This document shows, one piece after another, positions 34,173 through 45,762 of a DNA stretch of 64,000 nucleotides. The stretch's first letter is position 1. Every line of letters begins with the position of its first letter. Origin of the DNA: Leucobacter komagatae (GTDB taxonomy: Bacteria > Actinomycetota > Actinomycetes > Actinomycetales > Microbacteriaceae). Location: positions 1 through 64,000 of the forward strand of contig NZ_JXSQ01000006.1 of NCBI RefSeq assembly GCF_000834055.1, written 5' to 3'. Both the position numbers and the translations under genes were made by a program. The notes under the pieces are model-generated. The model had not been told where the DNA came from and made no database searches. It saw only the letters and a list, made by a program, of their open reading frames with translations.

Positions 34173-37100
34173 CTACTGACGCTGCCTACGCCGCGCCAGC
34201 AACATGGCTGCTGCCCCGAGCAGCGCGGCAAGCGCAGCGGCGAGCGCGACCGGGAGCAACGGGATACCGCCAGTAGCCGCGACGTCGTCGCCGCTACCGC
34301 CTCCTGTACCCGCGCTGGCGTCTCCGCCGCTTCCCTCGCTGCCGGTACCGTCTCCACCGTCAACGGAGCAAGCAGGCGCCTTGAAGGGGTCGGCCGCTGC
34401 CGTTTCGAGCCCATCGCCGATCCGCTTGGTCGCGGTGAGTGTCTCCCCGCACGGCACCTTGCCGGTGATCACCCAGGCACCGCCGGCATCAACCGTCGCT
34501 CCTGCAAAGACGTTGCCCTTCGAGTCGCGGACGATAACGACGGTCTCCGGTTCCCCGTCGAGGACATTGCCTCGCGCGTCAACCCACACCACCAGATCGC
34601 CAACGGTGTACGCGCCGGCGACGTTCTCACCGTCGATCGTGAACGCCTCGGAGACTACCGACTCGCTGCCATCGATGTGGGTCCGGGTGACGGTGATCGT
34701 CAGCGTGCTCTGCTTGCCGCTCTTCGTGCCGCTCTTTGTGTCCACCGTCGTCACCTCAGCGGTGATCTTTGTGTCGATCACTGCATTGTCGACGGAGACG
34801 TACACCGCGTCTGGCGAAGAGAACTCGGCATTCTTTTCACCGTCACCGAACGAGAAGAAACCTCGCTTCTCGATCGCGCCGCGCTCGGGGAACGGGTCGG
34901 AACGCGTTTTCAGGAACTCCGGATTGACCGTGTACATGTCGGTCTTGGAGTCGGCGACGAGCGCTTCGACGCCCTCGAACGGTGCATCGGCAATTGCGAG
35001 GTTTACCGACAGGTAGATCGCGTTCGGGTTCGTCTCCGACGTTCGTGAGGAGAAGAACAGCTCGGGATCCTCCCCCTCGGGAACCGCCAGCTCGACCACG
35101 TCATCACCGACAAGGATGCTGAATGTGAAGTCGCCATAGCCGCCGTCAATGAACGTGGCCCAGGCGCTGTCACTCATGTGCGCTGGCCGGTCAACCTTGA
35201 ACTCCAGCCGCATTGGCGCAGCGTAGGTGCTTTCCAGGTATTCGGGGTCGTCGAGGGGCAGGTAGACGCCCCCCTGCGCGTGCCCGAGCGCGTACGCGGC
35301 TGCCGACTTCGTCGTGTTCCCACGCCCATCCCACATCGGAATGTTGAAGGTCGTCGCCCCGAGCAGCGCCTGCGAACCAAGGTGCTCTTCCGTGACGGCG
35401 TCCGAAGCGTCGACGTAGCTGCCAATGGTGACATCGAGCAGGTCGAGGTCAGCACGATTCGTGTTCATGCCTGGCAGGTCTGCCCACATGAACTGTGCAC
35501 CGGCTGGCCCGCTGTAGCGAGCCATCTCAAGCATCGCGTCGGCCATCATCTTCGTCATCTGGACCGCGGAGTCCACGCCCATGCGCTCATTCGCCGTGTG
35601 CCACCAGCGCTCATTGCCAGGGATAACCGCGCCAAACGCCGTCATCTTGTTGCGGAAGTTGCTTGCGAGCGTCCCTCCGGTCGTGCCGAGTGGGTAGACG
35701 ATGTCGCTGAGCGATGCCGGGCCGTCGAACGACGCTGGGTCGTGGTTGATCGATGCCTTGTAGCTCTCGAACTGCAGCGCCGTCAGCGGGTTGTCATGGG
35801 TGACGTAGAGGCCAGCCCCGATTGGCGCGCCGAGCTCACCGATGGAAAAGCCCTGACCTTCGAAGGCCGCCTTCACGGCCCCCATGGCCTGCGCAGAGTC
35901 CTCCGCCGTGACGTGCATGCTGCGCACAAACATCGGGATGCTCAGCTTGCCGCTGTCAGGGGCATAGAACGGCGTCGGCTCCTCGGATTTGATCCCGCCC
36001 ATGAGTGCGAACGTGAGGTTCGGGGCGCCGTTGCTCGGGTTGCGCAGCAGGTGCTCTTGGATACCCATGTACTTCCCAAGGTATGCCTCGCCCTCAACAC
36101 CGTCGCGGAAGAACAGGTCAGCGATGCCCGCTGCTGCGCGCTGCAGCTGCATGTCGTCCGCGGTGACGCCCACCGCGTCGAGCGCAGCGGAAATAAGTGA
36201 CATGCCCCACACGACAGCGTTCTTGCCGTATTGCGGAGTTGGCATCTCCATGGTCATGCCGGTGTTGATCTCAAGGGTGAGCGCATCGTCGACGATCGCT
36301 GCCTGAACCTTTGGCGTGGTGCCGGCGGGTGCTGGGAGCCAGCCCCGCGCGCTTGCGCTCTCAACGAGCGCTCCAATGAAACCGTCGCGATCCGCCTCTG
36401 GCACACCGGTAACGTCAAGCGTGAAGATCGCGCGTGACGCAATCTGCGTCGTGCTGCCGTACGCAATGTCCTTGAGCGTCGGGTCACCCTCCCGCAGGGT
36501 GACACCGGCGGTGGCGTTCGTGAGCGCGAACGCTTTCCCTGCGTCAGCCGACAGATCCATCGACACGTCGGGGGTCACCGCAGTGGTGTTGCCAATGATC
36601 ACGGGGAAGCGTGAATCAGACGTGTAGGCCGCAATTGGGGTTTCCTCGCGATTGAGGTTCTTGTAAGCCCAGTTGTCGTAGAAACTCGGGTTAGCGTTGT
36701 ACGGGATCGACTGGAACGCAGCGGTGTTCGCCGCGGTCGGTGTGCCAGGCCCACCATCCTCATAGACGCCCATCGTGATGCGGATACGACGGTCGAGGGG
36801 CAGCCCGGCTTCGAGGAGCGCCTTCGCGGCGAACATTGTCGCGAGCGTCGGGCCGCTGTCATCCTGGATGCCTGCGCCATAGATCCAGCCGTCCTGGATG
36901 TACGGCGAGTGGTACGCGCCAGGGGTACCGAGATTGCCGTCTGCGTCGCGCCAGCGTTCAAGCTGGGCCGGAGACACCGATGATGTCGGTGAGTCGAGGT
37001 GGCTCAGCGCCGAGATCATCTCGGGCGCTTCTGGGTCGCCGATCTCGACGTACACGTACTTGTCTGGCTGGCGCTGCACCACAACGGGGAATCCCATGTC

Positions 37101-37499
37101 TTTGGCGAGCTTCACGACCCAGGCGAGCTTGGCGACCTTGCGGTCGTACTCATGCTGGTTCGCCTCGGTGTTGTTCACCGGGAACGGGTATTCGGTTGGG
37201 ATGGGTTGCCCGCCCGCACCGCGTGAGATGGAGTCGTAGCTCGACCCGTCGAGCATCGCGCCGACGAGGCTGAGCGGATCGTACGAGCCGTCGCCTGCCC
37301 GTGCGCTCGCCACCCGCCCGGTGAGGGCCTCCACCTCGGCGTGGATTGCCGCGCGATCCGACTCCGTGAGCGACAGGTCGTAGGTGGTGCTCGGCTGGAA
37401 CGGTTCCTCAGCCGAACTCTCGGTCGGGGCGCTGACCCCGACCCCCAAAGACAGCAACAATGACACCCCAAGTGCCATCGCAACAGGCGTATGCCTCAT
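34173..37499 (-). CDS. Exported M20-family (PepV-like) peptidase with wall-sorting-type tail
   Basis: A 1108-residue secreted protein. Signal peptide (MALGVSLLLSLGVGVSAP) at 8-25; M20 catalytic domain from about 40, with SHLDS (His167, Asp169), IQDDSGP (Asp213) and VYEDGG (Glu247) as zinc ligands and base. The usual EE pair is ED. A large middle region resembles the rest of PepV-like dipeptidases, then come about 200 residues of beta-type repeats and a Gly/Ser/Asp stalk, VAATGG, a membrane segment and RRRQRQ. The tail suggests sortase or membrane anchoring at the surface. ATG at 37499 follows AAGGAG. A role in external peptide degradation is likely. Confidence 0.85.
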   Translation of the reverse strand: MRHTPVAMALGVSLLLSLGVGVSAPTESSAEEPFQPSTTYDLSLTESDRAAIHAEVEALTGRVASARAGDGSYDPLSLVGAMLDGSSYDSISRGAGGQPIPTEYPFPVNNTEANQHEYDRKVAKLAWVVKLAKDMGFPVVVQRQPDKYVYVEIGDPEAPEMISALSHLDSPTSSVSPAQLERWRDADGNLGTPGAYHSPYIQDGWIYGAGIQDDSGPTLATMFAAKALLEAGLPLDRRIRITMGVYEDGGPGTPTAANTAAFQSIPYNANPSFYDNWAYKNLNREETPIAAYTSDSRFPVIIGNTTAVTPDVSMDLSADAGKAFALTNATAGVTLREGDPTLKDIAYGSTTQIASRAIFTLDVTGVPEADRDGFIGALVESASARGWLPAPAGTTPKVQAAIVDDALTLEINTGMTMEMPTPQYGKNAVVWGMSLISAALDAVGVTADDMQLQRAAAGIADLFFRDGVEGEAYLGKYMGIQEHLLRNPSNGAPNLTFALMGGIKSEEPTPFYAPDSGKLSIPMFVRSMHVTAEDSAQAMGAVKAAFEGQGFSIGELGAPIGAGLYVTHDNPLTALQFESYKASINHDPASFDGPASLSDIVYPLGTTGGTLASNFRNKMTAFGAVIPGNERWWHTANERMGVDSAVQMTKMMADAMLEMARYSGPAGAQFMWADLPGMNTNRADLDLLDVTIGSYVDASDAVTEEHLGSQALLGATTFNIPMWDGRGNTTKSAAAYALGHAQGGVYLPLDDPEYLESTYAAPMRLEFKVDRPAHMSDSAWATFIDGGYGDFTFSILVGDDVVELAVPEGEDPELFFSSRTSETNPNAIYLSVNLAIADAPFEGVEALVADSKTDMYTVNPEFLKTRSDPFPERGAIEKRGFFSFGDGEKNAEFSSPDAVYVSVDNAVIDTKITAEVTTVDTKSGTKSGKQSTLTITVTRTHIDGSESVVSEAFTIDGENVAGAYTVGDLVVWVDARGNVLDGEPETVVIVRDSKGNVFAGATVDAGGAWVITGKVPCGETLTATKRIGDGLETAAADPFKAPACSVDGGDGTGSEGSGGDASAGTGGGSGDDVAATGGIPLLPVALAAALAALLGAAAMLLARRRQRQ

Positions 37500-37743
37500 T
37501 GCAGTAATCTCCTTCATTGGTCCACAGTGACCATTTGATGAGTTCGCGATAAGCGAGGCCGAGTTCCCCTCAGACCACCTTCGAGCATCTCGGAGCTAGC
37601 CACCCAAGTCAAACGATCTCAGCGTGTCGGAGGGACTTTTCGCGAGTAACCTCAAGGGCCCCTCAAGACCCTTGTAAGTGCCGACACAACTCGGGTATAT
37701 CGCCGGAATCACTCGCCGCGTGTGGCCGAGTGCGCCGCGCACG

Positions 37744-37796: not shown

Positions 37797-39959
37797 CTAT
37801 GCGCGGGCGCTCGCGGCTACCGGGGCCTCGCCGCGGAACCGATCCCGCAGCTTCCCGAGCTCGCCCTCAGTGAGCCCGTGCGCGAGCAGGTAGGCCCACG
37901 TGCTGCCGTGCTCGGCCCGCACCGCGGCGAGCACGTCGACGATGTACTGGCGGGGGGATGCGATGAGATACGCCTCCATGTCGGCGGGGATGGTGACGCC
38001 GCCAAGGTGTGCGCGCACCTCCTCGACGAAGGGCTGTCCGAGTCGTTCGGCCGACTCGGCGTAGCTGCCGATGACGTCCTCATCGCAGACACCGATCGCT
38101 GACAGCAGGAGCGCGACGAACACCCCGGTGCGGTCCTTGCCTGCGGTGCAGTGGACGAGCACTGCCCCGTCTTCGAGCGCGAGGATCTCGCGGATGCCCG
38201 CAACAATGCGCTCGCCCCTGCCGTCGACGATCTCCTGATAGATCTCGGGCAGCGAGAGCATGGTTGCCGGCTCGGTGGCTGGCTCGTGCAGTGGCAGCGA
38301 CACGAGGGTTGGCCCGAACTCGGGGTCGGAGGCGCCAAGCGACTCTGCCTCGCCGCGCAAATCGATGATGGTGCGCACGCCGTATGCGCAGAGCGCGCGC
38401 TTTCCCTGTTCGTCGATGGCGTGCAGCCCGGCCGACCGCAGCAGCACGCCGTCGCGCAGCGTGCCGCCCTCGGTGAGACGCAACCCGCCAACGCCGCGCA
38501 CGTTGCGCACGCCAGAGACCGCCACCCCGACGTGATCGCCTGTCGCCTCGGCGCCGACGGGTTCGGGGATCGTGTTGCTGCGCACGAGCTGTTGGTACCA
38601 GGCGAAGGAGTCCTTCGGTGTCCGCACGAGCGTTTCGGCGTCGACGTGGATGAGACCGAACCGGTGGGTGAACCCCGCCATCCACTGGAAGTTATCGATG
38701 CTCGACCACACGTGGTAGCCGGTGACTCGCGCCCCAGCTGAGATCGCGTCGTGGAGCTCGGCGAGCGCCCAGGAGAGGTACTCGATGCGCTCGCTATCGT
38801 GCACGATGCCGTCCGGGCCTGGGATGTCGGCCCCGCCGACACCGTTCTCCGTGATCACGATATCGGGATGCTCGGGGTAGGTTTCGGCGACCCAGCGGAG
38901 GGCGCGGGCGAAACCGCCCGGAGTGATCTGCCTGTGCGCCCCACCCCAGCGGGCGCCGGGAGTTGGGACGAGCGAGAACCCGAGCGGCGCGGTAGCGCCC
39001 GCGAGCGCCGTCACCATGCTGCCGCGTTCTGGCACGCCCATCGCGTGCGTCGCAGCCCGCTCGGGAGCGGCCGCCGCGTACTGCGAGTACCAGTTCACCC
39101 CGAACACGTCCATCGGTTGCGCGATGATCTCGGCGTCCCCCTCGTGGATCGCGTCACCGAGCACCGCCGCAACCTCCGGCAGGTGCCCACGCCCAAACAT
39201 GGGGTCGAGGAAGAGCTTTCCCTCAAAGTATTCGGCGCGCTCGGCGGCGTGAACGTCGGCGGGATGGTCCGTTGCTGGCACGACACCGCCGATACTGACG
39301 ACGCTTCCGATCTGCCCGCTGACGCCCGCAGCGCGGAGCGCCTGGATCGAGCGCCCGTGTGCGAGGAGCAGGTGGTGAGCCGAGATGAGACCGCCACGCA
39401 CCCGTTCCCTGCGGTACGGGGGCAGTCCCCCGGCGAGGTAGCCACCGAGCGTCGGGTTCACCGGCTCGTTGAGGGTGAACCACTGGGCGACCCGGTCGCC
39501 GAGGCGTTCGCCCATGTGGCCGGCGTACTCGGCGAAACGCTCCGCAAAGTCGCGGTTCATCATGCCGCCGAGGTCCTCGAGCCACTGGGGAGTGTCCCAG
39601 TGGAAGAGGCACAGCGCGGGCGCGATGCCGCGCTCGAGGAGGGCGTCAACGACACGGTCGTAGTGGTCGAGCCCGGCCTCGTTCACGGTGCCAGCGCCGT
39701 CGACCACGATGCGCGGCCACGACGTCGAGAATCGGTGGGCTGTCCCGCCGAGGTCGCGGAGCAGGTCGAAGTCCTCGGCGAAGCGATGGTACTGGTCAAT
39801 CGCGGTGTCGCCGCTCGTGCCGTCCGGCACGGTGAGGGCGCCGCGCATGGCGGTGTCCCAGATCGACGGCACCTTCCCGTCGGCGTCCCATGCCCCCTCA
39901 ACCTGGTAGGCGGAGGTGGCGGAACCCCAAACGAATCCGGGTGGGAAGGTGCGAGTCAT
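37797..39959 (-). CDS. Family 1 glycoside hydrolase (beta-glucosidase) fused to a tyrosine phosphatase
   Basis: One 720-residue frame. Residues 1-460 are a complete GH1 barrel: GFVWGSATSAYQVEG at the start, acid/base Glu165 in FTLNEP, nucleophile Glu371 in VITENG and the end YHVWSSIDNFQW. Residues about 475-715 match the Y_phosphatase3 type: SGVRNVRGVGGLRL, LLRSAGL, IIDLRGEAE and the CX5R loop HCTAGKDRTG (Cys604, Arg610). There is no stop or frameshift between them. The start overlaps the ABC ATPase stop by 4 bp, and there is no signal peptide, so it acts in the cytoplasm on what the importer delivers. The phosphatase might remove phosphate from an imported or phosphorylated glycoside, or from a regulator; this is inference. 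Confidence 0.92.
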   Translation of the reverse strand: MTRTFPPGFVWGSATSAYQVEGAWDADGKVPSIWDTAMRGALTVPDGTSGDTAIDQYHRFAEDFDLLRDLGGTAHRFSTSWPRIVVDGAGTVNEAGLDHYDRVVDALLERGIAPALCLFHWDTPQWLEDLGGMMNRDFAERFAEYAGHMGERLGDRVAQWFTLNEPVNPTLGGYLAGGLPPYRRERVRGGLISAHHLLLAHGRSIQALRAAGVSGQIGSVVSIGGVVPATDHPADVHAAERAEYFEGKLFLDPMFGRGHLPEVAAVLGDAIHEGDAEIIAQPMDVFGVNWYSQYAAAAPERAATHAMGVPERGSMVTALAGATAPLGFSLVPTPGARWGGAHRQITPGGFARALRWVAETYPEHPDIVITENGVGGADIPGPDGIVHDSERIEYLSWALAELHDAISAGARVTGYHVWSSIDNFQWMAGFTHRFGLIHVDAETLVRTPKDSFAWYQQLVRSNTIPEPVGAEATGDHVGVAVSGVRNVRGVGGLRLTEGGTLRDGVLLRSAGLHAIDEQGKRALCAYGVRTIIDLRGEAESLGASDPEFGPTLVSLPLHEPATEPATMLSLPEIYQEIVDGRGERIVAGIREILALEDGAVLVHCTAGKDRTGVFVALLLSAIGVCDEDVIGSYAESAERLGQPFVEEVRAHLGGVTIPADMEAYLIASPRQYIVDVLAAVRAEHGSTWAYLLAHGLTEGELGKLRDRFRGEAPVAASARA

Positions 39960-40729
39960 GACAGTGTCCTTTCGGTGGCGTGAGTGTTCGGAAGCTGCGG
40001 CAGCCGCGGCGCGGCAGCGAGCAGTTCCCTCGTGTAGGGATGTTCTGGGGCGGAGATGACCCGCTCGGTTGGTCCGCACTCGACGATGCGGCCCTCGTTG
40101 AGCACGCACACCTCGTCAGAGATCATGCGCACCACGGCGAGGTCGTGTGTGACGAAAAGCATGCTCAGCCCGGTTTCTTCGCGCAGGTCGGCGAACAGGT
40201 TGAGCACGCGTGCCTGCACGGAAACGTCGAGCGATGACACCGGTTCGTCGCAGAGCAGGAGGCTCGGCTCAGCCATGAGTGCCCGCGCGATGGCGACGCG
40301 TTGGGCCTGGCCGCCAGAGAGGTTTCCTGGCTTGACCTCGCCGAAGCGGTCGGGCGCGAGGCCAACGCGCGCGAGGAGCTCACGCGCTGCCGCTCGTCGT
40401 TGGGCGCGCGTGCCGACGCCGGAGATGGTCCGCGGCTCGGCGACGATGTCGATGACTCTGCGGTGCGGGTTGAGCGAGGAAACGGGGTCTTGGAAGACCA
40501 TCTGCACCGGGTGCTGCGAGTCGTCATCGGCAACGGTGACGCTGCCAGATGTCGGCGCTTTCAGCCCGAGCACGGTGCGGGCGAACGTGGATTTCCCCGA
40601 GCCAGACTCCCCGACGAGGCCAACGCAGCCGCCGCGCGGCACGGTGAGGGAGACGCCGTGGAGCACGGTGCGGTTGCCGTAGCCGACGACGAGGTCGCGC
40701 ACGTCGAGTGCTGCGGGTGTTGCGCTCAT
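39956..40729 (-). CDS. Oligopeptide-type ABC transporter ATP-binding protein (DppF-like)
   Basis: A 257-residue ATPase. Walker A GESGSGKST, signature LSGGQAQR, Walker B LLLCDEPVSSLD and H-loop LFVTHDLAVV are present, as in DppF/OppF. The C-terminal zinc-type Cys cluster of DppD/OppD is absent. It overlaps the genes on both sides by 4 bp. Together with the second ATPase it powers import through the two permeases of this operon. Confidence 0.9.
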   Translation of the reverse strand: MSATPAALDVRDLVVGYGNRTVLHGVSLTVPRGGCVGLVGESGSGKSTFARTVLGLKAPTSGSVTVADDDSQHPVQMVFQDPVSSLNPHRRVIDIVAEPRTISGVGTRAQRRAAARELLARVGLAPDRFGEVKPGNLSGGQAQRVAIARALMAEPSLLLCDEPVSSLDVSVQARVLNLFADLREETGLSMLFVTHDLAVVRMISDEVCVLNEGRIVECGPTERVISAPEHPYTRELLAAAPRLPQLPNTHATERTLS

Positions 40730-41598
40730 GAGAGTGTTCCTTCGGCGAGGGTGCGGAGCCGGCGCGGGCGTGGCCCGTCGAGGCGCGGGATCGCGTCGAT
40801 GAGGGCGCGAGTGTATGGGTGTGCTGGCTGGGTGAGGAGCTGCTGCGCTGGCCCGGATTCGACGACGCTGCCCGCGCGCATCACGATGAGGTCGTCGCAG
40901 CGCTCAGCGGCGACGCCGAGGTCGTGTGTCACGAGCAGCAGGCTGGCCCCGGTGCGCTTGCGGCGCTCGTCGATGAGGTCGAGCACGCGTTTTTGCACGG
41001 TAACGTCGAGCGCGGTGGTCGGCTCGTCGCCGATGAGGAGCACGGGGTCGGTGAGAGTCGCGGCCGCGATGCCGATGCGTTGCCGTTGGCCACCGGAGAG
41101 CTCGTGCGGGAAGCGTCGCGCTTCGTGCTCTGGGTCACGGAACCCGACGGCCGCCATCGCGTCGATCGCGCGCCGCCGCAGCGCGCTCCGGCTCGGCCGC
41201 GCCCTGCCGAAGGTGAGCACTTCGGTGAGTTGCTGGCCGACGCGGTAGGTCGGGTTGAGTGAGCGGAGCGGATCCTGGTGGATCATTCCGACCTGCGCGG
41301 CGAGCACACGGCGTCTTGCCGCCGCGCCAGTGTTGAGCATGTCCACTCCCGCGAGTTCGACGCTGCCCGTGACGCGCGCGTCCAGCCCGGGAGGGTGGAT
41401 CCCGAGCAGCGAGCGGATGAGCATCGACTTTCCCGCCCCAGACTCGCCGACGACCGCGAGCGAGCGGCCAGCGCGAATACTGAAGGAGACGTCGTCGACG
41501 ACGGTGCTTTCGACGCCGCGGCGGTGGATCGTTGTGGTGAGTGACCGCACCGCGAGGACGGTGTCGGGGGCGGCGGAAACGGGCGGGGTTTCGGTCAT
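40726..41598 (-). CDS. Oligopeptide-type ABC transporter ATP-binding protein (DppD-like)
   Basis: A 290-residue ATPase with Walker A GESGAGKSM (Met instead of the usual Thr after Ser), signature LSGGQRQR, Walker B LLIGDEPTTALD and H-loop LLVTHDLGVA. ATG at 41598 overlaps the permease stop by 4 bp; open frame upstream is antisense to the permease gene. It pairs with the following ATPase to energise the importer. Confidence 0.9.
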   Translation of the reverse strand: MTETPPVSAAPDTVLAVRSLTTTIHRRGVESTVVDDVSFSIRAGRSLAVVGESGAGKSMLIRSLLGIHPPGLDARVTGSVELAGVDMLNTGAAARRRVLAAQVGMIHQDPLRSLNPTYRVGQQLTEVLTFGRARPSRSALRRRAIDAMAAVGFRDPEHEARRFPHELSGGQRQRIGIAAATLTDPVLLIGDEPTTALDVTVQKRVLDLIDERRKRTGASLLLVTHDLGVAAERCDDLIVMRAGSVVESGPAQQLLTQPAHPYTRALIDAIPRLDGPRPRRLRTLAEGTLS

Positions 41599-42440
41599 CG
41601 TCGTGCCTCTCTGAAGTGCTCGCCGAGCACGTTGACGGACAGGATCGTGAGGCAGATCATCAGCGCGGGGAACATGGTCAGCCACGGCGCGCTCGTGAGT
41701 TCCGCTCGGCCCTGCGCGATGAGTGCGCCCCACGAGGGCTCTGGTGGGCGGAGGCCGAAGCCGAGGAAGCTCAGTGCTCCTTCGGCGACGATTGCGCCAG
41801 CGATCGTGGTCATGAGTACGGGGATCATCAGCGGCAGCACGCTGGGGAGCACCTCCTTGGTGAGCACCCGCCAGCCGCTCGCCCCGAGCGTTCTTGCGAC
41901 GACAACGTGGTTCTCGGTCGCGACGGAGAGCGTGGCGGCGCGAGCGAGGCGCGCGAAGACGGGGATGGTGAACGCCGAGATGATGAACCCGATGGTGAAG
42001 ATGCTCGGTCCGGCGAGCGTCACGACGGTCGACACGATGATGAGCGACGGGAGCGCGATGGTGACGTCCGTGATGAACCCGACGGCGGCCTCGACGACGC
42101 CGCGGACGAGCCCGGCGAGCACGCCGAGCAGGATCCCGACGCCGCCGCCGATGACCACGGTCATGATCGCGACGAAACCGCTCGCGGCTGCGCCGTGCAG
42201 CGACCGGGAGAGGATGTCTCTGCCGAGGCTGTCGGTGCCGAACGGGTGCTGGAGCCCCGGAGCAGCATTGATCGCGCTGTAGTCGTTCGCCAGTGGGTCT
42301 GCACCGGCGCCGAGGAGCACGGCAATCGTCGCGGCGGCGAGCACGCTGAGCCACCCGATGGCGAGGGTGATACCCAGTTGCGGGATCCGGGCGCGGGCCT
42401 TCGAGCTGACGGGAATGGCGATGAGTTCAGGAGCGGCCAC
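41595..42440 (-). CDS. ABC transporter permease (DppC-like)
   Basis: A 281-residue permease with about six helices. The family block HPFGTDSLGRDILSR near residue 65 and the EAA loop ARTLGASGWRVLTKEVLPSV identify the DppC/OppC type. GTG at 42440 follows CGGAGAAGCGCTC and overlaps the DppB-like gene by 14 bp. Longer in-frame readings are antisense to that gene. Confidence 0.88.
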   Translation of the reverse strand: MAAPELIAIPVSSKARARIPQLGITLAIGWLSVLAAATIAVLLGAGADPLANDYSAINAAPGLQHPFGTDSLGRDILSRSLHGAAASGFVAIMTVVIGGGVGILLGVLAGLVRGVVEAAVGFITDVTIALPSLIIVSTVVTLAGPSIFTIGFIISAFTIPVFARLARAATLSVATENHVVVARTLGASGWRVLTKEVLPSVLPLMIPVLMTTIAGAIVAEGALSFLGFGLRPPEPSWGALIAQGRAELTSAPWLTMFPALMICLTILSVNVLGEHFREARR

Positions 42441-43377
42441 GAGCGCTTCTCCGATCGATGAGGAAGAGGGCGATGTCGGTGAGGATGCCTGCGGCGACCA
42501 CGACGATCGCCGCGAACAGCACGACCCCCTGGATGAGCGGCAGGTCGCGTGCGCCGAGCGCGCCAACGGTGAGGCGCCCGAGCCCGGGGAGGGCAAACAG
42601 CTGTTCGACGAGCAGGGAGCCGCCGAGCGCGGTCGCGACGGTGATGCCGAGCATCGCGACAAGGGTGGGAGATGACGGGCGGAGGATCCGCCGCCACATG
42701 AGCGCCCTGTCGCTCGCGCCTCGCACCATGGTCGCGTAGGCGTACGGCGCCCGGACGGCTTCGATCGCCGCCCCTCGGAGCGCACGGGTGTAGACGGCGG
42801 CCTCCGAGATGCCGAGGGTGAGCGCGGGGAGGATCATGCGCCTGAGGTTCTGGATCGGATCCTCGGCGAACGCGACGTACCCCGTTGCTGGGAGCCAACC
42901 GAGGTGCACGGCGAACAGGTAGATGAGGATCACGCCGACGACGAACGACGGTACCGCGAGCGTGATGAATGTCGCCGTTGAGACGACCCGGTCAAAGCGG
43001 CCACCGACGCGGCGGGCGCTTCCGAGGGCGAGCGGGATGATCGCCGCGAGGGCGAGGAGCTGTGCGAGGAGCACGAGCTCGAGTGTCACGGGAATGCGCT
43101 CGAGGATTTCGGTGAGCACTGGCCTTCCTGACGTGAACGACGTTCCCCAATCCCCGGTGAGCACGCCCCCGACCCAGTCGAAGAACCGCGGGAAGAAGCC
43201 CTGGTCGAGGCCCAGCGTGTGGCGGAGTTCCGCACGCTGAGCCTCGGTCGATTCCTGGCCGAGCAGGATGAGCGCCGGGTCGCCTGGCATGAGAAACGCC
43301 AACTGGCAGGTGAGGGCCGCGACGACAAGCAGCACCCCGAGTGAGCGCAGGATGCGCGGCAACCCGGCGCGGATCAC
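42427..43377 (-). CDS. ABC transporter permease (DppB-like)
   Basis: A 316-residue permease: first helix, then FLMPGDPALILLG and the external region with LGLDQGFFPRFFDWVGGVLTGDWGTSF, then five more helices with the EAA-like loop around MVRGASDRALMWRRILRPSS. GTG at 43377 overlaps the binding-protein stop (GTGA). It forms the channel with the DppC-like protein. Confidence 0.9.
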   Translation of the reverse strand: MIRAGLPRILRSLGVLLVVAALTCQLAFLMPGDPALILLGQESTEAQRAELRHTLGLDQGFFPRFFDWVGGVLTGDWGTSFTSGRPVLTEILERIPVTLELVLLAQLLALAAIIPLALGSARRVGGRFDRVVSTATFITLAVPSFVVGVILIYLFAVHLGWLPATGYVAFAEDPIQNLRRMILPALTLGISEAAVYTRALRGAAIEAVRAPYAYATMVRGASDRALMWRRILRPSSPTLVAMLGITVATALGGSLLVEQLFALPGLGRLTVGALGARDLPLIQGVVLFAAIVVVAAGILTDIALFLIDRRSARGRS

Positions 43378-44927
43378 TGCTGCGCCTCAGCCCAGCCGAT
43401 CGATGCTGGCTGCACCGACACGAGCGAGATCCCGGTGAGATCTGGCATACCAGCGACCTCCGCCTTGGAGACGAAACCAGCGTTGCTCGCGGTGAGCCAG
43501 AGAATCGGGAGGTTGTCGGCGAGGTTCTGCGACGCTACCTTCAGGTCGGCTGCTCGCTCGGCAACGTTGGTGTTCGCTGCGGCCGCGTCGAGGGCTGCAT
43601 CCGCTGCCGGGTTAGCGTAGCCGCCGAAGTTCACTGGCGCCTCCGAGCGCGCGACCAGGCGTCCGCCCGCAGCGTCGGCAAACAGCGAGGTGACGAAGTC
43701 GGCGGCCTCGAAATCGTGGGCTCCGAGCGTCGCACCGTACTCCGCCGCTTCGAGCGGCTTGAGGGTTACGGTGACACCGACCTCCGCGAGCATGTCCTTG
43801 AGGACCGTGCCCCGCTGGACCGTTTCGGTGCGGTTGTTGACGGTGAGTTCGAACGCGAGATCTTTGCCCTCGAGCACCTGCTTCGCGGCCGCGGGATCGT
43901 ACTTCGGGTACGTGATCTCGGGGGCGAGTTCGCCGAGGAGCGCGTACGGGTTGTCGACCGTTGTGCCCTCGCCGAGGTTGACAACGGTGTTCACCGCGTC
44001 GCGGTCGATTGCCTGCGCGAGTGCGTGGCGCACCTCAAGGTCGGCGAACTTCGGGTTCGCGAGGTTGAGCACGATTGAGGTCATCGCTGCCGGTGCGGCA
44101 TGGACGGCGAGGGCGTCGTTGCTGCGGGCCTGTTCGAAGTGGCTGGCGACCTCGCTCCACATGAGGTCAACGTCTCCGGCTTGCAGGCTCTGCAGGCGCG
44201 ATTCCGAGTCGGGCATCATGGCGTACACGATCGAGTCGAGGTAGGCCGGCTCGCTGCCCTGGTATTCGTCGTTTCGCGTGACGGTGATGGAATCGCCGCC
44301 GACGAACTTCTCGACCTTGTACGGGCCGGCGCCGAGTGGGAACCCGAACTCGTCCGTCGCCGAGGTCGATGCGATCATGCCGAGGCCGCGGGCGAACTGG
44401 GCGCTGAAGTCCGCGTTCGGCTGGTGGAGGGTGAGCGTGAGCACGGTGTCGTTCTCGACCGTCATGTCTTTCACCTGGGCGAGCTGCCCGGCCGATGCCG
44501 ACTTCGTCTCTGGGTCGAGGAGGTGTTCGAAGTACTGCTTGATCGATGTTGCGGTGAGCGGTGAGCCGTCTGAGAACGTCAGACCGGCTGGGAGCTCGAT
44601 CGTCCACGTCGTTCCCGTCGCGTCGGCCTCCACCGAGGTCGCGAGTCCCGGGACGACGGTGCCGCCCTTACCCGGCTTCATGAGGGGCTCGTAGAGCGCG
44701 TTCGCCAAGATGAAGAGCGGCTGCTGCCCGATCGCGCCAGCTGCGGGGTCGAGACTTGGCACCTCACGGTCGAGCGCGACGGTCATCGTGCCACCAGCAA
44801 CGGGGGTTGCGGTGCTCTGCTGGGTGGTTGGCGTCGTTCCGCCGGCTGGCCCGCTGCACGCCGAGAGCGTGAAGGCACCAAGAACGGCGGCAGCAATGAG
44901 GCCGCGTGCGGCCCACTTTCTGGACAT
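43374..44927 (-). CDS. Family-5 ABC transporter solute-binding lipoprotein
   Basis: A 517-residue lipoprotein with lipobox LSAC (Cys24), a Thr/Gln/Pro-rich linker and an SBP_bac_5 fold (MTVALDREVPSLDPAAG, LPAGLTFSDGSPLTA, GAGPYKVEKFVGGDSITVTR). The family binds peptides, nickel, or plant oligosaccharides. Coupling to a GH1 glycosidase suggests a beta-glycoside ligand here; this is inference. ATG at 44927 follows AGGAGG. It is the first gene of the six-gene operon and divergent from a TetR gene across 181 bp with palindromes. Confidence 0.92.
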   Translation of the reverse strand: MSRKWAARGLIAAAVLGAFTLSACSGPAGGTTPTTQQSTATPVAGGTMTVALDREVPSLDPAAGAIGQQPLFILANALYEPLMKPGKGGTVVPGLATSVEADATGTTWTIELPAGLTFSDGSPLTATSIKQYFEHLLDPETKSASAGQLAQVKDMTVENDTVLTLTLHQPNADFSAQFARGLGMIASTSATDEFGFPLGAGPYKVEKFVGGDSITVTRNDEYQGSEPAYLDSIVYAMMPDSESRLQSLQAGDVDLMWSEVASHFEQARSNDALAVHAAPAAMTSIVLNLANPKFADLEVRHALAQAIDRDAVNTVVNLGEGTTVDNPYALLGELAPEITYPKYDPAAAKQVLEGKDLAFELTVNNRTETVQRGTVLKDMLAEVGVTVTLKPLEAAEYGATLGAHDFEAADFVTSLFADAAGGRLVARSEAPVNFGGYANPAADAALDAAAANTNVAERAADLKVASQNLADNLPILWLTASNAGFVSKAEVAGMPDLTGISLVSVQPASIGWAEAQQ

Positions 44928-44992: not shown

Positions 44993-45056
44993 GTGGCACT
45001 AGTGCCACTTTCCGACCGAATAACACCGGGTGAACACCTCGTGACACGGGTGCCAC
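44993..45056. promoter_or_regulatory. Candidate TetR operators between importer operon and regulator
   Basis: GTGGCACTAGTGCCAC (44993-45008) is a perfect 16-bp palindrome. A second, related site GTGACACGGGTGCCAC lies at 45041-45056. Both fit GTGnCAC half-sites and lie between the divergent SBP and TetR genes, so autoregulation and operon control by the TetR protein are likely. Confidence 0.65.
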
Positions 45057-45108: not shown

Positions 45109-45762
45109 ATGACGACCGCAGACCCTGGGCAACACACCCCACTCAGCCGTGAGGAACAGAAGGCGAAAACGAGCGCGGCTATCCGGTCGGCAGCCGTCAC
45201 CCTCATCGAAGAGGTCGGGTTCGAGCGTGCGTCGATCGACGACATCGCGGCACGCGCCGGGGTCGGCAGGCGCACCTTCTTTCGCTACTTCCCGTGCAAG
45301 GAGGCTGTGCTATTCGGCGACAGCTACCTGCCGGGCATTCCTGCGAGCATCGACGCCAGCCTCAGGCGCGGCGACGATCCACTGCACGCGACATTCTCGT
45401 CGCTGCGCGACAGTGTCGCCTACCCGACGGCCCCCGATGAGCTCGACGTCAGGCGCAGGCAGCTGCGCCTGACACTGCTCAGCATCCCCTCGGTCAACGC
45501 GTACTACCGCACGGCGATCGGCGCGCTCGCGAGCGACATCACCGAGGTGATCCGCAGTCACCCGCGCTGTGCCGCCGTGCCACTGCTCCCCGAACTCATC
45601 GGCGGTCTCGTACAAACCGCGGTCATCGCGCACGTCGACAGCGGCGAGATCGCGCACCTGAACATCGACGAGCAGGTCTGGCGGACGGCGCTGGGGGCGG
45701 CGCTCGGCTGCGCTACTTCAGCGCACCAAGCCGATACCCGCGCCCCCGAACCGTCTCAATGA
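45109..45762 (+). CDS. TetR/AcrR-family transcriptional regulator of the importer operon
   Basis: A 217-residue regulator with an N-terminal TetR helix-turn-helix (AAVTLIEEVGFERASIDDIA, then ARAGVGRRTFFRYFPCKEAV). The C-terminal ligand domain is variable and all-helical. ATG at 45109 follows GGAGGC. It is divergent from the six-gene importer operon and its last 50 bp overlap the convergent response-regulator gene. The GTGnCAC palindromes in the gap are its likely sites; an imported glycoside or its product may be the inducer. Confidence 0.88.
   Translation: MTTADPGQHTPLSREEQKAKTSAAIRSAAVTLIEEVGFERASIDDIAARAGVGRRTFFRYFPCKEAVLFGDSYLPGIPASIDASLRRGDDPLHATFSSLRDSVAYPTAPDELDVRRRQLRLTLLSIPSVNAYYRTAIGALASDITEVIRSHPRCAAVPLLPELIGGLVQTAVIAHVDSGEIAHLNIDEQVWRTALGAALGCATSAHQADTRAPEPSQ

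What the first reader, a model, noticed from the sequence alone, without database searches (positions are those of the whole stretch)
37797..39959. Beta-glucosidase and tyrosine phosphatase fused in one protein
A complete GH1 catalytic set (Glu165, Glu371) and a complete CX5R phosphatase loop (Cys604, Arg610) lie in a single uninterrupted 720-residue frame, coupled to an importer operon. Both active sites look intact, so both activities may be real. Possibilities are hydrolysis of a phosphorylated glycoside (dephosphorylate then cleave, or the reverse), or feedback control of a phosphoprotein by the same polypeptide that uses the sugar. I do not know this architecture as a described system.
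Basis: partly seen in the sequence, partly recalled or inferred. Interest (0 to 1): 0.78.

Follow-up and report, generated by a model that had tools for sequence, protein, structure and literature searches.

The report
Fused beta-glycosidase and small-molecule phosphatase
An actinobacterium makes one protein that joins a sugar-cutting enzyme to a phosphate-removing enzyme, encoded at the end of an uptake operon, and the likeliest use is to dismantle an imported compound that carries both a sugar and a phosphate.

Summary
On the minus strand, one uninterrupted 720-residue frame joins a GH1 beta-glycosidase (residues 2-463) to a Y_phosphatase3 domain (480-708), with E165, E371, C604 and R610 in place. 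It is no artefact: 6 of 398 sampled family genomes (own included; five genera) carry the full-length fusion at 60-100% identity, with both catalytic sites invariant and both halves under purifying selection. Order and phylum samples of 396 genomes each showed only the window's own. The gene closes an SBP_bac_5/Opp-type importer operon with a divergent TetR and a conserved 16-bp palindrome.

The phosphatase has the MptpB-type HCXXGKDR loop. Of its 20 best-ranked unfused relatives, 11 adjoin an Rv0805-like phosphodiesterase in an importer operon (mostly one orthologous group) and one sits in the same Opp layout without GH1. The GH1 half lacks the Ser/Tyr pair of 6-phospho-glycosidases (0 of 6). 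Best reading: a bifunctional catabolic enzyme for an imported phosphorylated beta-glycoside, with phosphate removed first or carried away from the glycone O6. Substrate unknown. New variant of a known kind.

The parts
37797..39959 (-). fused GH1 beta-glycosidase / Y_phosphatase3 protein, 720 aa
38571..39956 (-). GH1 domain (residues 2-463); acid/base E165, nucleophile E371, Q425 and F434 at the glycone-specificity pair
   Evidence: Pfam 8e-128; alignments
38523..38570 (-). inter-domain linker (residues 464-479), model pLDDT under 50 at 467-479
37836..38522 (-). Y_phosphatase3 (ALP-type phosphatase) domain, residues 480-708
   Evidence: Pfam 4.9e-46; PDB relatives 8dhi (3e-14) and MptpB 1ywf (6.7e-11)
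38124..38153 (-). phosphatase P-loop HCTAGKDRTG, residues 603-612 (C604, K608, D609, R610)
   Evidence: invariant in 6 of 6; ALP signature in PMC3091653
39956..40729 (-). Opp-type ABC ATPase (OppF-like); its end overlaps the fusion's start codon by 4 bases
40726..42354 (-). Opp-type ABC ATPase (OppD-like); longest ORF given, the real start is likely near 41604 (my estimate)
41595..42785 (-). permease BPD_transp_1 (OppC-like); start uncertain
42427..43377 (-). permease BPD_transp_1 (OppB-like)
43374..44927 (-). lipoprotein-like solute-binding protein, SBP_bac_5 (start chosen at 44927)
44993..45008 (.). perfect 16-bp palindrome GTGGCACTAGTGCCAC, probable TetR operator; weaker copy (3 mismatches) at 45041
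45109..45762 (+). divergent TetR-family regulator

Best explanation
The protein is a cytoplasmic bifunctional catabolic hydrolase. The Opp-type importer (SBP_bac_5, two permeases, two ATPases) brings in a compound that carries both a beta-glycosidic bond and a phosphate monoester (or yields one after import). The ALP-type phosphatase half removes the phosphate and the GH1 half cleaves the beta-glycoside, so sugar, aglycone and phosphate can feed metabolism. The phosphate is removed first, or sits away from the glycone's O6, because the GH1 pocket lacks the residues used for a 6-phosphate. The fusion, through a short flexible linker, keeps the two steps together and in equal dose. A TetR repressor acting on a conserved 16-bp palindrome controls the operon. 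Shown here: both domains, their catalytic residues, conservation, operon linkage, the palindrome. Inferred: cytoplasmic location, substrate class, order of steps, repressor role.
For: Fusion conserved at 60-77% identity in five other genomes, with TetR and the whole importer in 5 of 6. Purifying selection on both halves: for the pairs WIN-G069, G089-G389 and G389-G326, dN/dS is 0.08-0.11 (GH1) and 0.15-0.27 (phosphatase). The SBP orthologue (58% or more) occurs in 5 of 349 family genomes, and all 5 carry the fusion. Unfused phosphatases: of the 20 best-ranked, 11 adjoin an Rv0805-like phosphodiesterase; 9 of these show all six genes MalK-like ATPase, SBP, phosphatase, phosphodiesterase and two permeases, and 2 are cut by contig ends. 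L164 has SBP_bac_5-BPD-BPD-ABC-ABC-phosphatase on one strand, i.e. the window operon without GH1. The phosphodiesterase matches Rv0805 (2hy1) at 1.1e-97. Control: 0 of 20 unfused GH1 neighbourhoods hold that phosphodiesterase or the phosphatase. An ALP phosphatase, Pho16B, was active on all ten substrates tested, glucose-6-phosphate and glycerophosphate among them (PMC6409689, passages). Precedent: importer, putative phosphodiesterase AccF and phosphatase AccG for the sugar phosphodiester agrocinopine (PMC4526662, passages); AccA is a distant relative of the window SBP (E about 6e-11).
Against: No substrate is known and no assay exists. They are only 33-44% identical to the fused phosphatase. 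The window SBP's best solved matches are AapF, an unnamed SBP and a nickel binder, with AgaA fourth and AccA much weaker. In G089 the SBP and OppB genes are missing beside an intact fusion. The phosphatase half evolves faster, with dN/dS 0.62 and 0.55 for WIN-G389 and WIN-G326. Other unfused relatives sit after an SmpB-like gene (L149, L151), near an alpha/beta hydrolase (L165-L167), or with no informative neighbour (L157). Q425 is not unique to the fusion: 6 of 124 unfused GH1s have Gln there.
Confidence: 0.47

Rival explanations
1. The two halves act on different molecules of one pathway: GH1 splits an imported non-phosphorylated beta-glycoside, and the phosphatase removes phosphate from another intermediate. 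The fusion only ensures equal dose.
For: GH1 keeps the Phe at position 460 typical of plain beta-glucosidases. Pho16B shows that an ALP phosphatase can be promiscuous.
Against: Every genome in which the operon was recognised by its SBP has the fusion (5 of 5 among 349 searched), so no split version was seen; a mere dosage link might be expected to split sometimes.
Confidence: 0.29
2. Feedback control: the phosphatase half dephosphorylates a protein (transporter or regulator) and so ties uptake to glycoside use.
For: ALP enzymes related to MptpB do have protein phosphatase activity (PMC3091653, passages).
Against: No kinase among the operon genes identified; the commonest neighbour found for unfused relatives is a phosphodiesterase with an importer.
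Confidence: 0.1
3. A 6-phospho-beta-glycoside is hydrolysed with its phosphate on, and the released sugar 6-phosphate is then dephosphorylated.
For: GH1 holds true 6-phospho-glycosidases (PMC4013033, passages).
Against: The S451/Y460 pair (Spodoptera numbering) is Q425/F434 in 6 of 6 fused proteins. NCBIfam 6-phospho models score far under their cut-offs (best 298.5 of 610). Sugar 6-phosphate could enter glycolysis directly, so a phosphatase would waste it (general knowledge).
Confidence: 0.06

Closest known systems
GH1 beta-glucosidases (e.g. Cba3 of Cellulomonas biazotea 8znv, Td2F2, MeBglD2)
   Same: fold (Foldseek E about 1e-40, TM to target 0.92-0.96), catalytic pair, most glycone-binding residues
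   Different: Gln instead of Glu at the glycone-specificity site; scores 438.3 bits against a 478.5 cut-off for NCBIfam TIGR03356; carries a C-terminal phosphatase
Atypical lipid phosphatases: MptpB, Listeria Lmo1800, Pho16B (P-loop HCXXGKDR; here matched through PF13350)
   Same: P-loop signature and family match 4.9e-46
   Different: fused behind a glycosidase in an import operon; lipid activity untested
acc operon of Agrobacterium (AccA-E importer, AccF phosphodiesterase, AccG phosphatase)
   Same: import of an intact sugar phosphoester followed by intracellular hydrolases; AccA is a distant relative of the window SBP
   Different: AccF splits a phosphodiester; no glycosidase-phosphatase fusion is described in the passages seen
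MalK/SBP_bac_8 importer with Rv0805-like phosphodiesterase and unfused Y_phosphatase3 (11 of 20 loci here)
   Same: related phosphatase in an uptake operon
   Different: other importer class, phosphodiesterase instead of GH1, no fusion; I know of no characterisation (not searched by name)
Synthase-phosphatase fusions such as trehalose-6-phosphate synthase/phosphatase (recalled)
   Same: one polypeptide handles sugar bond and phosphate
   Different: biosynthetic, unrelated domains; the present protein would be the catabolic mirror image

Membership tests
GH1 retaining beta-glycosidases | GH1 domain with acid/base and nucleophile glutamates | tested here: met
   Pfam 8e-128; E165 and E371 in 6 of 6
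GH1 retaining beta-glycosidases | NCBIfam equivalog cut-off for 'GH1 family beta-glucosidase' (TIGR03356) | tested here: not met
   438.3 bits against 478.5: a GH1 member, but not assured to be a plain beta-glucosidase
GH1 6-phospho-beta-glycosidases | Ser at position 451 with Tyr at 460 (PMC4013033, passages) | tested here: not met
   Gln/Phe in 6 of 6; the 124 unfused relatives gathered here (not a random sample): Ser/Tyr 64, Glu/Phe 51, Gln/Tyr 5, Glu/Tyr 3, Gln/Phe 1
Atypical lipid phosphatases (MptpB family) | P-loop HCXXGKDR[TA]G | tested here: met
   HCTAGKDRTG in 6 of 6
Atypical lipid phosphatases (MptpB family) | phosphoinositide phosphatase activity | not testable with these tools
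   needs an assay
acc-type sugar-phosphate import operon | importer with a related SBP plus a phosphatase in one operon | tested here: met
   importer incomplete in G089
acc-type sugar-phosphate import operon | phosphodiesterase in the operon | tested here: not met
   none among the window operon genes scanned with Pfam
acc-type sugar-phosphate import operon | SBP binds a sugar phosphate | not testable with these tools
   needs ligand binding

The most novel reading that the evidence does not exclude
A dedicated, previously undescribed nutrient route in Microbacteriaceae: intact phosphorylated beta-glycosides are imported by an Opp-type transporter and dismantled by one bifunctional glycosidase-phosphatase. 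It would be the first catabolic GH1-phosphatase fusion that I know of, and would point to a natural phosphorylated glycoside pool not yet recognised as a bacterial carbon and phosphorus source.
Probability: 0.4. Interest if true: 0.68.

Novelty: new variant of a known kind. Interest (0 to 1): 0.55.

Why it matters
If true, it gives a concrete function to an orphan branch of the large Y_phosphatase3/ALP family, whose members are named tyrosine or lipid phosphatases after a virulence factor although several relatives here sit in nutrient-import operons. It also supplies a fusion that tells which two reactions belong together, and an operon whose inducer could reveal an unrecognised phosphorylated glycoside in nature.

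Tried and rejected
Artefact or frameshift: rejected by full-length homologues in five other genomes. Chance motif: rejected by Pfam and PDB sequence matches. 6-phospho-glycosidase: rejected by the S/Y test and NCBIfam cut-offs. Gln425 as a fusion-only signature: weakened, since 6 of 124 unfused GH1s also have Gln; an earlier motif count (54 ORFs, duplicates included) had shown one. Arg343 in place of an otherwise conserved Trp (114 of 124) as an aglycone phosphate binder: not used as evidence, because MAFFT and phmmer align that loop differently. Plasmid origin: 0 of 93 matching plasmid records cover 80% of the query (limit 1e-60). A wider regulon: the operator has one site in the genome at up to 1 mismatch, while the reversed control pattern has 3 per strand, so the count itself shows no enrichment; the case for the operator rests on its position and conservation. 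Structure: AlphaFold2 gave pLDDT 83, with blocks of the GH1 half mostly above 80 and of the phosphatase half mostly 52-91. Foldseek's listed top 50 were all GH1 entries, so the phosphatase half rests on sequence; no residue distances could be read. Literature: architecture searches, on GH1 residues, returned no paper.

Limits of counts: the genome samples are drawn evenly from larger groups and overlap, so they are not summed; whether G089 was in the sample I could not see. The 20 unfused phosphatase loci are the 4 plus the first 16's phosphatase matches in rank order, so 16 are from the window's genus; gene calls there come from my own codon-usage script, checked by tblastn. A first, cruder caller missed 9 of 20. 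For the GH1-neighbour control, 20 top unfused hits were taken in rank order, except that G370 was left out and G064 stands in place of the next-ranked one.

Full report
What is there. The finding is exact in coordinates but lies on the minus strand: 39959 down to 37797 is one open frame of 720 codons plus stop. Pfam places Glyco_hydro_1 at residues 2-463 (8e-128) and Y_phosphatase3 at 480-708 (4.9e-46). The start codon overlaps the stop of the upstream ATPase gene by four bases, so the gene ends a tight operon: SBP_bac_5 protein, two BPD_transp_1 permeases, two ABC ATPases with oligo_HPY tails, then the fusion. A TetR gene points the other way.

It is a real, conserved fusion. In 398 genomes of the family, 6 (the window's own included) hold a full-length match at 60-100% identity, in five genera. 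In the window's genus only its own genome does, 1 of 54. Samples of 396 genomes of the order (limit 1e-110) and 396 of the phylum (limit 1e-105) gave only the window's own full-length match; the phylum sample's other 9 matching genomes matched the GH1 half only. A pattern scan of named genomes kept 80 of 287 relatives, of which one (L024) was full-length. None of 93 plasmid records with a match covered 80% of it. The divergent fusions rule out an assembly join.

Both halves are kept. Across the six, E165, E371 and the whole loop HCTAGKDRTG are invariant. Nei-Gojobori dN/dS for three of the closer pairs is 0.08-0.11 in GH1 and 0.15-0.27 in the phosphatase; WIN-G389 and WIN-G326 reach 0.62 and 0.55 in the phosphatase, which is the faster-evolving half. 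FastTree puts the fused phosphatases together (support 0.993, 28 sequences) and the fused GH1 domains together (support 1.0, 130 sequences), which fits a single fusion event.

The operon is inherited as a block. Importer and TetR orthologues flank the fusion in 5 of 6 genomes. G089 lacks SBP and OppB, though its fusion is intact. The SBP orthologue occurs in 5 of 349 family genomes, all with the fusion; the next best is 31% identical. An Abhydrolase_3-type gene directly follows the fusion in 4 of 6 (G089, by Pfam; G173, G389 and G326, 75-79% identical to it), not in the window or G069. Between TetR and SBP a palindrome GTGGCACTAGTGCCAC is kept with 0-1 mismatches in the 5 loci that have both genes; a second, weaker copy (1-3 mismatches) lies 47-48 bases away in 4 of the 5. 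It occurs once in the window's genome at up to one mismatch; the reversed control pattern occurs 3 times per strand.

What the phosphatase half is. Its loop is the signature of the atypical lipid phosphatases (PMC3091653, passages). Its best solved relatives are 8dhi and MptpB. A soil member, Pho16B, was active on all ten phosphoesters tried, glucose-6-phosphate and glycerophosphate among them (PMC6409689, passages). I took the 20 best-ranked unfused relatives and read their neighbours. Eleven adjoin a metallophosphoesterase; 9 show the full set MalK-like ATPase, SBP_bac_8, phosphatase, phosphoesterase, two permeases, L156 is cut by its contig end within the phosphoesterase, and L152 is a short contig with SBP, phosphatase, phosphoesterase and then an amidohydrolase. 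All eleven are from the window's genus and ten form one orthologous group, so this is few independent associations. The phosphoesterase matches Rv0805 at 1.1e-97; the SBP weakly matches sugar binders and UgpB-type proteins. L164, also from the window's genus, has SBP_bac_5-BPD-BPD-ABC-ABC-phosphatase on one strand: the window operon without GH1. L150 has such an importer on the same strand but with genes between, and L148 has one on the opposite strand. L149 and L151 have the gene after an SmpB-like gene, L165-L167 near an alpha/beta hydrolase, L157 nothing telling. Of 20 unfused GH1 neighbourhoods, none holds the phosphatase or the phosphodiesterase.

What the GH1 half is. Structure prediction and Foldseek give a GH1 barrel near Cba3, Td2F2 and MeBglD2. 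In GH1, position 451 (Glu in glucosidases, Ser in 6-phospho enzymes) covaries with 460 (Phe or Tyr) (PMC4013033, passages). The fused proteins have Gln and Phe, 6 of 6; the 124 unfused relatives gathered here have Ser/Tyr 64, Glu/Phe 51, Gln/Tyr 5, Glu/Tyr 3, Gln/Phe 1. So it is not of the known 6-phospho-glycosidase type, and the glycone site is altered. It also misses the NCBIfam beta-glucosidase cut-off (438.3 against 478.5).

How it most likely works. Shown: domains, active sites, conservation, operon. Inferred: an imported compound with a beta-glycoside and a phosphate is dephosphorylated by the C-terminal half and cleaved by the N-terminal half, in that order or with the phosphate on the aglycone. 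The nearest worked example is the agrocinopine system, in which an importer whose SBP is a distant relative works with a phosphodiesterase and a phosphatase (PMC4526662, passages). The SBP alone does not tell the substrate, since its family binds peptides, metals, opines and sugars.

Novelty. Each part belongs to a known family; the architecture did not appear in the listings of the papers searched. I rate it a new variant of a known kind, with an unknown substrate as the main gap.

Noticed in passing
L153-L156, L158-L163, L152: An operon recurrent in the window's genus: MalK-like ATPase, SBP_bac_8, Y_phosphatase3, Rv0805-like phosphodiesterase, two permeases (9 complete, L156 and L152 partial); it looks like uptake and breakdown of a phosphodiester.
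   Followed up: partly
L149:5974-7160, L151:6086-7360: A Y_phosphatase3 gene lies directly after an SmpB-family gene in two other genera of the family (SmpB by Pfam in L151; same layout in L149, not scanned).
   Followed up: no
window 34173-37517 (-): 1114-aa protein with an M20 dipeptidase-like region, a weak Ig-like match and a C-terminal hydrophobic stretch ending in RRRQRQ, like a cell-surface anchor; not part of the conserved operon.
   Followed up: partly
L134 (G089): The fusion operon has lost SBP and OppB while TetR, OppC, both ATPases, the fusion and the esterase remain.
   Followed up: partly
L028, L029, L040, L049, L069: GH1 enzymes from several phyla also have Gln at the glycone site, but with Tyr at the partner position; no phosphatase loop was found in their fetched flanks.
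   Followed up: partly
L135:2378-3160: In G. tibetensis a GH16-like gene sits next to the TetR of the fusion operon.
   Followed up: no
L164:13456-13974: A second, weaker metallophosphoesterase-like match (36%) lies upstream of the Opp-phosphatase operon.
   Followed up: no
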